Of a DNA stretch of 64,000 bases, positions 52,043-58,105 are shown piece by piece; position 1 is the first letter of the stretch, and each line of letters begins with the position of its first letter. The stretch is taken from NCBI GenBank assembly GCA_001600055.1, contig BCIV01000002.1, positions 438,287-502,286 on the forward strand. The letters are read 5' to 3'. The position numbers and the translations under genes are program-made. This DNA is from Filobasidium wieringae. Its lineage: Eukaryota > Basidiomycota > Tremellomycetes > Filobasidiales > Filobasidiaceae. The notes under the pieces are model-generated. The model was not told the DNA's origin and made no database searches. It saw only the letters and a program-made list of their open reading frames with translations.

Positions 52043-55000
52043 CTACAAGTTCAACCGGATCATCCCCTCCTTCCTCACGACCTCCACATCATTCCCATCC
52101 TCGAAAACGACCTCGTCCCAGAACCGAACCCCTCCTCCCCTTTTCCCCCGTTTACTCGTGCTCGTCTTGACCTCGTCCACGGGCACGTTCACGGGCACGT
52201 TGACGTCCACGTTCCCGTCCACGTTCCCGTCCATGGGGTCTTCCCCTGTCCCCGTCACGCCCGCCGTCACGGGTTCCACGACGCTGACACTACCGGGGAT
52301 GACCTCCTTCCGAACGAGGACGACCCGTCTAAAGTACTTGCTCGGGATGAACCCGTCCTCGTCCCCCGGAATGAGGACGACCCCGTTCGTACTGACGTAA
52401 ACGTGAAACCCATCCCGGATCAAACTCGGGAAATCCAGGTAGATGAACAGGCTCGAGTTCGTCCTCGGTCCTGCAGAACCAGCGTCGTCGTCGTCGTCGT
52501 GAAGCGCTGTCGGTCAGCGTCTGCGCTCGCTCATCACCCCGCTCAGACCTCGGGACTCACCGCTCTTGGCGCCCTCCCTAGCGACGGCCAGATGGACATG
52601 TAACCTGCCCATCCTGCCCAACCCCTTCTCCCTGATCCCCTCCCAAACCTCACTCCGAGTCCCATGCACGAGTTCCCCCACCCGCTTCCTCCCCTCCCCC
52701 TCCGGATCGTCCAGGACTCGCTCGAGATGGTCGCTCGAGACGGTCACGATCGAATGACCCTGAGCGGCCCGGATGAGATATTCCCCCCCGCCACCGTCTT
52801 GCACCCCGGCCAATCGTTCTTCCTCATTCCCGAACCGATCCCCAAGAACGGGATCGTACCCCTGCCCTTCATTCACGACGGGCGGCGCATCCATCGCCAC
52901 GATCTCCCCCTGTACCCACCCCTGACCCAACTTGACCCCCTTCTTGAGTGGATAAACCGGTCGACCGGAAGAAGTATCCCTCCCATACTGCAGCGTGAAT
53001 CGTTGTTTGGCGTTGGACCGGACCAGGTGGGATAGGTAGGAGAACGAGATGGGTTGGAGTTTAGGATGGTTGAGCTGTCACGTGTACGTCGATCGATCAG
53101 TCCCAGGTAGCTCACTCGACGCCACACGCCACACGCCACGCGCCACGCGCCGACTCACCAAATCCAAACACCTCACGAACCCGTCCTTCCTGATGGGCAA
53201 CCTCTCCTTCTCCGCCCCATGTCTGAGCAGATAAGCGAGCGTCTTGGAGTACCGGACCTCTTCCGGATCCTTCTCCAGTCCTCTCAGCTTCGGGGTGGCC
53301 GCGGTCGACGGCTGGTCGGTGGGTGAGACGAGGTGGGATGGGGGGGAGGTGACGGTCTTGATGGGCGTACGGGAAGGAGTCCACGGTTCCTTCTTCGTCC
53401 GTTCTCGAAGCGTCATACGTGGTGTCGTCGCTGTCGTCGATCCTGTAGATACGGGGGAAGGGACGGAAACGCCATGCGATTCGAATCGTTCCAACAACGC
53501 TCGAGTTCGAGTGAGATGAGGGGTGGTCCCGTCGAGAGGTAACAAGCCTCCCTTTCTATTCCGTCTCGAAATCTTCTCTAGCTATCGTACCGCGACCCTT
53601 TCTCTCAGCCTCTCTTCTTCCCTTCTCACGACCATCCAACTCACCATCCCCAAGCTTTCTTCGCTCCACCACCCCTCGCTGCCCTCCCTCTCCTCAAAGA
53701 ACCCGGCGACATGTCCCATAGCCGCGCTCGTAAGCGCCTTGTCGCTATACCCTCCCTCGAGGACCGAGATCACTTTCCCCCCCGCGTGTCGGTCGGCGAA
53801 ACGACGGATCGCTCGGGTATATTGGGAGAAGAACGAGGTCTGTCGGAAAACGGTTTCGAACGTTCAGAGCATGTCCCGCGGTGGATAACGAGACGAGATG
53901 AACCGAGACTTACCGGGACTCGTCGACCGTGTCTCTGCATAGCGTCGTACTCGTGCTCACAGGCGTCGAACCCGGCACTACAAACCGATCGTCACCCCAC
54001 ATCAACACCCTCCCTCACCCCGCGCTTACCCGCCGAGAACGGGATCACTCACCTGATGAATACCGTAGTCCGCTCAGGATCAGCCTCGGTCTCCCTCAAA
54101 AACCTCTCCGCGCTATCGAGCAGTTCAAGGTATTTCGGGTAGAGTCGATCGTAAAAGTCCGATTCCGACGTGTACGTATCGAGATGAACGTTATCGCTAT
54201 CGATCGGGATGGGAGATCAGCTCGGTTCTCAACACGCTCGAGCATCAGAGGCGGACTGGACTGACATGTATTGACCGTGCGCTGCGATCTTGACGCTAGC
54301 ATCCTTGATCAAATCGAGGTTCCCATCTTCACAGGGATAACTTTGCTGTCCGATCCCAGTCCTTTCAGATTTCCCCGTTTCTCGATCACGATTCCCCATG
54401 ACGACGTCGACTTACGATATCATGCACGCTCCCGTAAAACCCTTTCCACCCTCTCCCTCTCCTCCCACTCCTCGCCTCCTCGATCGTCATGACCCTCTCC
54501 GGCTTCCCGCCCTCTCTAAGCAGATCCTCCGCCCACCCCAGCTCGTTCAAGCCCATGACGATCTCCTGCGTCCCGTTCCCGTGGTGCAGATCGAAATCGA
54601 TGATGACCGCTCGATCTTGAGAATAAGTCTGGTGCGCGTGGAGGGAGGAGACGAGGAGGTTGTTGATGTAACAGAAACCCGAGGGGGTGGTAGGGCCGCA
54701 ATGATGGCCTGGAGGACGGATCGTACAGAACGCACCGGAGTACTTGGGGGTGGCGGTGGCGGTGGAGGAACAGATGAGGTCTACGGCTTGACAGACTGTT
54801 CTTACCTGAACGCGCGGGGGGGCCAGGTAAGGGGAACCGGGGTTCAGCTTTCGACATCTCTGTCTTTTTGATAGTAGCGAACGCATGACAGACTCACACA
54901 TCCTTCAATAGCTTCCACACTTCCGGGAGCTAGATAGAGATCGTTCTGGTTCAACTCGATCGTCTCTTCTTCCCTCGTTCCTCCTCCCCCCGTCCCAGCT

Positions 55001-55626
55001 TCCGGTCCGGAGAGGGTGAAGGAGGAAGGGATCTCGCATTCCCCCTTCTTGATCTTCTCCGGAGCCTCCAGAGCCCATCGGGTCAATTTCCTCAAGTACT
55101 CTGATCGAGGAAACAAGGTCGCGGGGCCGGAAGAGAGGGGGAGAGGGGGGGAAGGGTGTTCCGACGCTGGAGTGTGGATGATTTGGAGGGCCGGGTGAGT
55201 ATGGAGTAGACGTTCAGGACCGTTCGAGTTGAGAGGTACGGGCGGGACGTGGACGTAAGGAGAATCCATCGAGCTCAAGGTGGATTCCGAGCGGGGCGTA
55301 TCTTTCCGAGGAGTCGCCGTGGAGATGTTCAAATTCCCCAGTAAATCCGCGACATCCGGGGTCCGTTCCCTCTCCCTCGTTCGTTCCTCCTCAGCCGTAT
55401 CATCCTGCAAACCAAGCTCCTGCTTCACGGCGTCACCTTCCGAACCGGATTCTTCGAGATGAGCGATAGCAGCTGCCGCTCCGAGCAAGACGGCACGGAT
55501 CCGTTCGGGTCTTTCGTAGATATGAGCGGCGCTCTGGGTCCTTATCCATTTATGCTGGGCGCAAGCTGGTTGCAAGCACAGAGCGAGGGGTGAGGGTGTC
55601 GAGGAGGATGAGGAGGGGGAGGCCAT
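52043..55626 (-). CDS. HOS3/TPT1: Predicted fusion: Hos3-type histone deacetylase + tRNA 2'-phosphotransferase (Tpt1/KptA)
   Basis: Nine exons: 54898-55626, 54416-54805, 54266-54345, 54053-54196, 53914-53977, 53645-53839, 53159-53572, 52561-53074, 52043-52506. All are in phase and give 997 residues. Residues ~1-530 are a deacetylase: RPPGHHCGPTTPSGFCYINN, IIDFDLHHGNGTQ and SAGFDACEHE place the catalytic His pair and zinc ligands, and YSYPCE-like and EGGYS elements fit Hos3. A linker with MTLRERTKKEPW (Met587), a phrase I recall from Hos3 tails, leads without a stop into Tpt1 (~630-960): VRYSKTLAYLLRHG, EYLIRAAQGHSI, VHGT, GRLHVHLA and FHVYVSTNGVVL..DGFIPSKYF. Tpt1 removes the splice-junction 2'-phosphate from tRNA, giving ADP-ribose 1''-2''-cyclic phosphate. 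The key junction is a 72-nt intron (53573-53644). If it is not spliced, the HDAC ends at 53582 and Tpt1 could start at ATG 53416. Confidence 0.75.
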
Positions 55627-55658
<32 letters not shown>

Positions 55659-55992
55659 TGAATTCGCTGTGAATCCCTTTTCGAAGGATGAGAGAGAACC
55701 CGTTTTTGGTTGTTTACGAAGCCAAAGTTGCGAAAGTGAACGAACGAGCGGAAGCAAATTCGACCTAATTCGTCAACGAGCGAGCGAACGCACCGACTCG
55801 AAGCTTTTCAAACTGGAAACACTTTGACGGGAATTTCATTCGACAACCAGTCGATTCTTCAGTGAACGCTCGACTGATCCCCTTCGAACACCTCTGCATC
55901 GTATTCTCCTCGAAATTCCATCCAGCTGGCGGCCAACTTTGAAAGCTCTGTGCCGCTACGAGCCGAGTCACACCACCTCACCTCTCCCGGCT
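55627..55992. promoter_or_regulatory. Divergent promoter of HDAC-Tpt1 and ARG2, with (GTC)n tract
   Basis: 366 bp between two outward-facing starts. Directly before the HDAC ATG lies a tract of about ten GTC units (55627-55656, GAC on the coding strand), so the deacetylase leader would be (GAC)n. No other motif is claimed. Confidence 0.5.
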
Positions 55993-58105
55993 ATGAAAGT
56001 CCTGTCCCGTGTCTTTCCATCCAACGTATCCCAGCGACTTGGAGGTGTCGTTTCCAGGAGAAAGACGTTATCTGGGACGACTTACCGAATAGTAAGGACA
56101 TCATTTCCAATCTCTGCTGGCTGTGACGATACTAATGGGTTCGCTGCTGACGTGACTAGCCGAACCATCAACGTCATGTATCCAGCTCTGCTATCATCAA
56201 GAACGACAACGAGACCAATGTGAGCTCTCTTCTCTCTTCTTTCTCATCTCCTCGACTCGTTTTAATCAATCTATCGGCGATGTGCTACAGGACTTTGTCT
56301 TATCCCTCCTCCAAGCCGGCCCTTCTGCGAGGGACAGTAAAAAGTTCCTAGCTTCCTTCGGAGCCGGTCCTTCTCATACCCCTCCCAATCCCTCCCCATC
56401 CTCAAAACCTACGACGACTTCGAATCGAGAGATATCGCCTACCGATCCGTCCACCCCGACAAATACGGAAAACCCTATCGTCCTAGACGTCTTATCGCAC
56501 CACGCTCGTCGTCCAGCACTAGTCAAGATCCAGGGCCCATTCACCGACACGCAACTGGATTCCGTAGCGAAAGGTCTAGCCTATCTTCAGAAACTCGGTC
56601 TGGTCAGTGTCATCCTCGTAGATCGGGACGATATCGCTCTAGATCGACATGGTCGTCCCATGTGCGGGTCGGAAGCGAGGAGATTAGTATTGAGGGAGAT
56701 GGAGCGGACCGTCTCCTTCTTGGCCAAACATCGAGCGGGGGCTAGACCCATCTTGTCCACGGTGATAAGATCCCGACCGGTCCCTTCTTTCCGATCAAAC
56801 AACCCTTACTTGTCTCGACATGTCGAGGAGGAAGAGGAGGGACGTTCGTTCGAGACGTATGTCGAGGAAGAAGGTCTGGCTCATGTCAGACGGGCGGTGG
56901 AGGAAGGTGAAATCCCCGTCCTCATCCCCGTCGCGTTGGATCAAGGGTGCAAGTCTAACCTGATAGATGGGAATCTCGTCGTCAAGGCGCTGGCGGAATC
57001 GATGGGTCGATCGGGCAGGGATTTCGTCGCCGCTACCAAGGGGACAGGGACGGGCTCGGAAAGGGAAGACACGTCGATCGGGGACAAATCCCAGATCCCT
57101 CCTTCCTCCGATCTCACCCCCCTTCGACTGCTCATCATCAATAGGGAAGGAGGGATCCCATCCTACGCTCGATCGGGGATGCCCCATCTTTCCATAAACC
57201 TTCAGACAGAGTACGACTTTATCCAACGCAACTTCCTCGATCAATGGAACTCGACTCATCCTTCCGCCCTGTCCAACCTCACCCTCGCGAGGGATTGTCT
57301 GGAACACATGCCTCCCAGCGCTTCCGCCTTGATCGCCAGTCATAAATCCCCCGCGGCGCTGATAGCCAATCTGATAACGAACAAACCGGCATATTCGGCC
57401 AGTCTCCCTCACGCCCTGCTGGCAGAGGGGGAGGGCAAGATCACGCCTCACACGCCCACCTTGATTCGTAAAGGTCTACCGATCAGGATCATCAGGTCGT
57501 CCCGTGAGATCGACAAGGAAAAGATGAAACGTCTGTTGGAGAGGAGTTTCAATCGGGTCCTCGATGAAGGCCCGTTCTGGGCGAGGATGGAGGAGAGTTT
57601 GGATTTCGCCATCGTCGCGGGGGACTATGCTGCCGCCGCGATCTGCACGAACGAAGGGGGGCGAGACGATCCTCATGCCGCCCCGTCATGTTATTTGGAC
57701 AAGTTCGCCGTCTTGCCGTCCCATCAGGGAGACGGGACCGTGGATTTCCTCTGGGTCGCGTTGAGGGACGAGACGTTCGGTCTAGGGTTGAAGGACGCCG
57801 CCAACGCCAACGTGGGTTCCCTCTCCGGTGCGGGGGCCGGGAGAGATCTCGTCTGGCGATCACGAGCGGATAATCCGGTGAACAAATGGTACTACGAACG
57901 AAGCAATGGATTCGTGACGCTCGGCAATTGGAAGATGTTTTGGTGTGATGCAGAACAACGTATACGCGGGATGAAGTCGTCCACCGGGACGAGCGCTTCT
58001 CGCCGTGACAGAGGCATCCCAATAAGGGTGGTGGAGGACGAGGAAAGCGGTCGACTTTTGGAATGGGCCAAACATATAGAACCAATCCCATCAGCATGGC
58101 ATTGA
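55993..58105 (+). CDS. ARG2: Mitochondrial amino-acid acetyltransferase (acetylglutamate synthase)
   Basis: Three exons (55993-56091, 56160-56219, 56291-58105) give 657 residues. The N-terminus is short, basic and Ser/Arg-rich ([18 protein letters not shown]), as expected for a mitochondrial presequence. Next comes a degenerate amino-acid-kinase-like half ([44 protein letters not shown]). The C-terminal NAT domain has [42 protein letters not shown] and WKMFWC, all hallmarks of fungal Arg2. The enzyme makes N-acetylglutamate from glutamate and acetyl-CoA, the first step of arginine biosynthesis, and is usually feedback-inhibited by arginine. The downstream gene CRM1 converges on it. Confidence 0.93.

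What the first reader, a model, noticed from the sequence alone, without database searches (positions are those of the whole stretch)
52043..55626. Histone deacetylase (Hos3-type) appears fused to the tRNA-splicing enzyme Tpt1
A Hos3-like deacetylase and a complete tRNA 2'-phosphotransferase lie on the same strand with no room for a promoter between them. A 72-nt intron (53573-53644: GTGAGT donor, branch-like CTGAG, AAG acceptor) joins the last HDAC exon to the Tpt1 frame in phase, and all nine exons then give one 997-aa frame. The Tpt1 frame is open for 52 codons upstream of its first possible ATG (53416), and that ATG sits in an MTLRER phrase I associate with Hos3 tails, so it is not an obvious Tpt1 start. 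A protein linking an NAD-using RNA phosphotransferase to a chromatin or protein deacetylase would be new to me. It could couple acetylation or NAD state to tRNA splicing, or simply co-express two enzymes.
Basis: partly seen in the sequence, partly recalled or inferred. Interest (0 to 1): 0.85.

Follow-up and report, generated by a model that had tools for sequence, protein, structure and literature searches.

The report
Deacetylase fused to tRNA-splicing enzyme Tpt1
In this yeast-like fungus and several unnamed relatives, the enzyme that finishes tRNA splicing appears to be made as the tail end of a protein deacetylase, joining two normally separate proteins into one.

Summary
The minus strand 55626-52043 encodes one nine-exon, 988-aa frame: a Hos3-type deacetylase followed by a complete Tpt1. 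Intron 6 is 63 nt (53644-53582, acceptor CGATAG), not 72 nt; the corrected exon 7 restores the conserved Hos3 tail ending in MTLRER. The ATG at 53416 is therefore inside Hos3 sequence, and no in-frame ATG follows it before Tpt1. Six unnamed proteins (6 of 35 Tpt1 hits) also carry the MTLRER-type motif and a Tpt1 start in one open frame; five show more Hos3 tail upstream, and two of those have Trp at the putative start. So the fused exon recurs and is hardly an assembly accident. Named Naganishia, Cryptococcus, Tremella and Kockovaella entries are separate Hos3 and Tpt1 proteins. The window's genome search found one Tpt1, a fungal-type tRNA ligase, no RtcB, and tRNA introns at 20 of the 30 best tRNA loci, so this is probably the sole, needed Tpt1. 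Best reading: a lineage-restricted bifunctional Hos3-Tpt1 protein. Why the two are linked (tethering, dosage, neutral) is untested. No transcript data; separate isoforms are not excluded.

The parts
54898..55626 (-). exon 1: start codon and N-terminus of the Hos3-type deacetylase
   Evidence: ATG at 55626; LALCLQPACAQHKWIRT resembles Naganishia LAVLLQPACTNHKWIRT; blastp 52% over 13-606 to P0002
54416..54805 (-). exon 2: HDAC core (RPPGHHC, DFDLHHG)
54266..54345 (-). exon 3: HDAC core
54053..54196 (-). exon 4: HDAC core
53914..53977 (-). exon 5: HDAC core (AGFDACEHE)
53645..53839 (-). exon 6: end of HDAC domain (EGGYSDKALTSAAMGH...WWSEESLGM)
53582..53644 (-). intron 6, 63 nt, GTGAGT...CGATAG; its retention would end the protein at 554 aa
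   Evidence: acceptor set by homology of LEKISRRNRKG to Hos3 tails; retained product
53159..53581 (-). exon 7, the fusion exon: Hos3 tail (53581-53399), linker, Tpt1 N-terminus (KLRGLEKD from 53290, LLRHG motif)
53399..53416 (-). MTLRER motif of Hos3 tails; only in-frame ATG between exon-7 start and the Tpt1 domain
52561..53074 (-). exon 8: Tpt1 (KQRF, AQGHS, HGT, GRLHVH)
52043..52470 (-). exon 9: Tpt1 C-terminus and stop

Best explanation
The locus encodes one bifunctional polypeptide: an N-terminal Hos3-type zinc deacetylase, a Hos3 tail and linker, and a C-terminal Tpt1 that takes the place of the end of the usual Hos3 tail. Shown: single frame; Hos3 tail and Tpt1 start on one exon; recurrence of that exon in unnamed relatives; one Tpt1 found in the genome search. 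Inferred: the fused mRNA is the main one; both domains are active; the Tpt1 part removes the 2'-phosphate that the fungal-type tRNA ligase leaves on spliced tRNAs. Least certain (about 0.3): the Hos3 part positions Tpt1 where Hos3 acts (in budding yeast, the septin ring and the nuclear pore basket); otherwise the link mainly fixes equal dosage or is near neutral.
For: Both domains found. HDAC best PDB match is HOS3 7wjl at 2e-57, next 1.5e-28. Exon 7 starts with the Hos3 tail; an M-x-L-R-x-R type motif lies after EGGY in 55 of 119 Hos3 rows and in 28 of the 29 tremellomycete rows P0002-P0030 (the 29th, P0008, reads MILRDR in the alignment). Six of 35 Tpt1 hits (P0130, P0149-P0153) carry the motif and Tpt1 in one frame; five also carry RT[RH]ALL upstream. 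Linkers of 42, 73, 74, 84 and 152 codons all keep frame. P0150 and P0153 have Trp for the Met of the motif, and the window has no Met in its linker. No GTRAG or GTRNGT donor lies in 53416-53255. One PF01885 match in the 19.76-Mb genome, and no second Tpt1 with the whole protein. tRNA ligase CPD domain found, RtcB not found, tRNA introns at 20 of the 30 best tRNA loci. Location of yeast Hos3: PMC6960265, passages.
Against: No RNA or protein data. A full-length fused protein was not seen: none of the 120 listed of 785 whole-protein hits carries PF01885, and one search found none at E<=0.01 among the 7991 candidates scored (a capped list); unannotated genomes and unspliced metagenome frames could explain this. 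P0130 begins at the motif, so its upstream part is unseen; the HDAC domain itself is not seen upstream in any of the six. Named tremellomycetes keep separate proteins, so the link is dispensable. A viable Cryptococcus neoformans hos3 deletion (PMC5979944, passages) implies Hos3 is not the sole Tpt1 carrier there. Single origin of the fused Tpt1 has only 66/85 support. The motif scan of the window's linker and open frame is not by itself beyond chance.
Confidence: 0.86

Rival explanations
1. Fused and separate products coexist: retained intron 6 gives a 554-aa deacetylase alone, and an internal transcript start or leaky initiation at 53416 gives Tpt1 alone. (Overlaps with the best explanation; the odds need not sum to 1.)
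For: The retained intron reaches a stop after 554 aa; an in-frame ATG exists at 53416.
Against: In P0153 the retained intron reads through without a stop, and P0150 and P0153 lack the Met, so neither device is conserved.
Confidence: 0.2
2. Two separate genes packed tightly: Hos3 ends at the stop at 53582 and Tpt1 starts at 53416.
For: Separate proteins in named relatives; an ATG is available.
Against: 53581-53399 encodes conserved Hos3 tail; only 165 nt separate the stop and the ATG; fused exons in relatives; the Met is not conserved.
Confidence: 0.07
3. Assembly error joining two distant genes.
For: In five named species seen in both lists the two proteins come from contigs of different length.
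Against: The same join, with diverged linkers, occurs in six other protein clusters forming at least four groups.
Confidence: 0.01

Closest known systems
Hos3-type lysine deacetylases of Tremellomycetes (P0002-P0030) and HOS3 (PDB 7wjl)
   Same: HDAC core; conserved tremellomycete tail with LEK..KKR-type and MTLRER-type motifs
   Different: No PF01885 in any of the 120 rows listed and no LRHGA-type motif in them; the terminal K-[IV]-[IV]-L-[RK]-[IF] motif, found in 21 of 29, is missing here
Stand-alone fungal Tpt1, nearest Naganishia liquefaciens (P0121, 47% identity over 97% of the query, 368 aa)
   Same: Whole Tpt1 domain, KLRGLEK start region, similar C-terminal extension
   Different: P0121 and P0122 begin MSKLRGLEK, with 16 residues before the SKTLAYLLRH motif; here Hos3 precedes it
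Other Tpt1/KptA fusions: with PF00300 (P0141), SAP PF02037 (P0147), Nudix PF00293 (P0155); Nudix in Bodo saltans mimivirus (PMC9503650, passages)
   Same: Tpt1 joined to another domain
   Different: No deacetylase partner

Membership tests
Hos3-type (class II) lysine deacetylase | HDAC domain closest to HOS3 | tested here: met
   PF00850 1.7e-40; HOS3 7wjl 2e-57 against 1.5e-28 for the next match
Hos3-type (class II) lysine deacetylase | HDAC active-site motifs | tested here: met
   RPPGHHC 273, DFDLHHG 313, AGFDAC 449, EGGY 497; which residues bind zinc is recalled family knowledge
Hos3-type (class II) lysine deacetylase | tremellomycete Hos3 tail (EK..KKR-type, RT[RH]ALL-type, MTLRER-type) | tested here: met
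   alignment
Hos3-type (class II) lysine deacetylase | terminal K-I-I-L type motif of stand-alone tails (common, not universal, so not a strict criterion) | tested here: not met
   absent in the window, present in 21 of 29 tremellomycete Hos3 rows
Hos3-type (class II) lysine deacetylase | deacetylase activity | not testable with these tools
   needs an assay
Tpt1/KptA RNA 2'-phosphotransferase | PF01885 over full length | tested here: met
   profile positions 2-177 of 177, 4.3e-45
Tpt1/KptA RNA 2'-phosphotransferase | Arg-His-Arg-Arg tetrad and HGT motif (PMC6333775, passages) | tested here: met
   R654, H655, R700, R832 and HGT 812-814 by motif; these motifs align with PDB Tpt1 7yw2. No alignment to the CthTpt1 residues named in the paper was made, so the equivalence of R832 is inferred
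Tpt1/KptA RNA 2'-phosphotransferase | NAD-dependent 2'-phosphate removal | not testable with these tools
   needs an assay or yeast tpt1 complementation

The most novel reading that the evidence does not exclude
An essential tRNA-splicing enzyme has been permanently captured by a protein deacetylase, whose targeting (nuclear pore, cell-division side) now decides where or when the 2'-phosphate is removed from spliced tRNAs, or whose activity acts on Tpt1 or its partners.
Probability: 0.25. Interest if true: 0.85.

Novelty: new variant of a known kind. Interest (0 to 1): 0.62.

Why it matters
Two unrelated enzymes, an NAD-using RNA repair enzyme and a zinc deacetylase, appear to share one polypeptide in a fungal lineage that probably depends on it for tRNA splicing. 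It gives a natural test of whether tRNA splicing is tied to deacetylase location or activity. If it is the sole Tpt1, deleting Hos3 there would also remove Tpt1. And Tpt1, named as a potential antifungal target (PMC6333775, abstract and passages), can come in a very different protein context.

Tried and rejected
Rejected: the AAG acceptor at 53573 and the 997-aa length; 53416 as a conserved Tpt1 start; misassembly. Retroposition of Tpt1 is thought unlikely because two introns lie in its part; whether they are ancestral was not tested. Paper searches: no paper of the library holds both 'Tpt1' and 'Hos3'; the listings show no HDAC-Tpt1 fusion in titles or the abstract starts shown, and the passages read in PMC9503650 and PMC7050489 mention none. 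The library holds only open-licence PMC papers, and most subscription papers are missing. No structure prediction was run. Monophyly of the fused Tpt1 is weak (66/85), and grouping Naganishia with the jgi rows was not rejected (p-AU 0.376). A first tRNA scan that allowed only introns of 5 nt or more gave 25 of 30 loci; with no intron also allowed it is 20 of 30, which I use.

Full report
What was checked. The minus strand of 55626-52043 was read in three frames and spliced by homology. Eight introns of 63-92 nt, with GTGAGT, GTAAGT or GTCAGT donors and AG acceptors, give 988 aa. Pfam places a histone deacetylase domain at 168-514 and PTS_2-RNA (Tpt1) at 638-879 of the 985-aa first version; the Tpt1 figures shift by 3 in the 988-aa version.

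The key exon. With the acceptor at CGATAG, exon 7 begins LEKISRRNRKGGLLPLDG..PHLTRTRALLERFE..TTPRMTLRER. In an alignment with P0002-P0031 this stretch is the tail of Hos3. An M-x-L-R-x-R type motif follows EGGY in 55 of 119 Hos3 rows; of the 29 tremellomycete rows P0002-P0030, 28 match and P0008 reads MILRDR. The 120th row, P0001, was left out of that count because it has no EGGY; its sequence looks like an unspliced translation. So the HDAC frame crosses intron 6 and runs, with no stop, into KLRGLEKDPEEVRYSKTLAYLLRHGAEK, the start of Tpt1. Between 53416 and the Tpt1 domain there is no further in-frame ATG, and there is no GTRAG or GTRNGT donor in 53416-53255 by which Hos3 could leave. Openness of the frame alone is weak: 134 of 5000 Markov-1 sequences do as well.

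Relatives. A search with the Tpt1 part gave 35 proteins among 1740 candidates. Six of 35 carry [MW]xLR[ED]R ahead of Tpt1 in the same open frame: P0149-P0153 (source jgi) and P0130 (sources lgn, ena); five of them also carry RT[RH]ALL. Their pairwise identities (43-68% between groups, P0150/P0153 88%, P0151/P0152 98%; some compared stretches include intron read-through) suggest at least four groups besides the window. Linkers from the motif to KLRG measure 42 codons in the window and 73, 74, 84 and 152 in the others. P0150 and P0153 have Trp in place of Met at the motif. P0153 also contains the residues before intron 6 and reads straight through an intron at the same place. None of the six reaches the HDAC core itself. 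The linkers of five rows tested (P0149, P0150, P0151, P0153, P0130) all match a loose pattern of a short helix-like motif that I wrote after seeing them; it also matches 17 of 29 tremellomycete Hos3 tails. No shuffled control was made and the window was not in that list, so this is a lead only.

Separate genes elsewhere. In the search with the whole protein, 785 proteins passed and 120 were listed; none of the 120 carries PF01885, and none holds an LRHGA-type Tpt1 motif. Naganishia, Cryptococcus, Tremella and Kockovaella Tpt1 (P0121-P0129) are proteins of 297-375 aa. A Tpt1 tree puts the window, P0130, the jgi fused rows and Naganishia in one group at 91/85, unresolved inside. In a smaller tree the fused rows form one side of a branch at 66/85, too weak to prove a single origin; the jgi rows fill only 16-20% of the columns.

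Need for Tpt1. The genome search found one Tpt1 match and, with the whole protein, no second copy, only one weak match elsewhere, to another HDAC. A tRNA ligase CPD domain is present and RtcB was not found. Of 54 tRNA matches (a lower bound) the best 30 became loci. Aragorn, free to choose introns of 0-120 nt, calls intron-bearing tRNA genes at 20 of 30 loci and only intron-less ones at 10. With introns of at least 5 nt forced it was 25 of 30; in the intron-less bacterial setting 11 of the 30 loci gave no gene at all. L033 and L034 overlap and show the same two genes. Tpt1 is described as essential in fungal tRNA splicing (PMC6333775, abstract and passages).

How it may work. Both active sites look intact by motif. 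Each domain is probably an independent module on a flexible tail, with Tpt1 doing the last step of tRNA splicing. In budding yeast Hos3 sits at the septin ring and at daughter nuclear pores (PMC6960265, passages). That Hos3 carries Tpt1 to such places here is a hypothesis. Retention of intron 6 would give a deacetylase alone in this genome but not in P0153, so it is not a conserved switch.

Verdict. A recurrent, lineage-restricted gene fusion of two known families is the best reading; its physiological reason is open.

Noticed in passing
P0002, P0007, P0030 (Naganishia Hos3 proteins): These three Hos3 models are 1105-1157 aa long; Pfam finds a Mur ligase domain after the HDAC in P0002 (above cut-off) and weakly, below cut-off, in P0007 (P0030 was not scanned). 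It may be a gene-model merge or a second Hos3 C-terminal fusion; in the window's genome the one Mur_ligase_M match lies at C2:1033910.
   Followed up: partly
G000, 30 best tRNA loci (L011-L040): 20 of 30 loci hold tRNA genes called with introns of 11-21 nt, an intron-rich tRNA set.
   Followed up: partly
55980-58105, + strand: A divergent neighbour resembling an N-acetylglutamate synthase by eye (stop-to-stop ORF 56156-58105); not tested.
   Followed up: no
about 55627-55660, - strand: A GAC repeat lies directly upstream of the start codon and would read as poly-Asp in frame.
   Followed up: no
P0141, P0147, P0155: Tpt1 joined to PF00300, SAP (PF02037) and Nudix (PF00293) domains in other proteins.
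   Followed up: no
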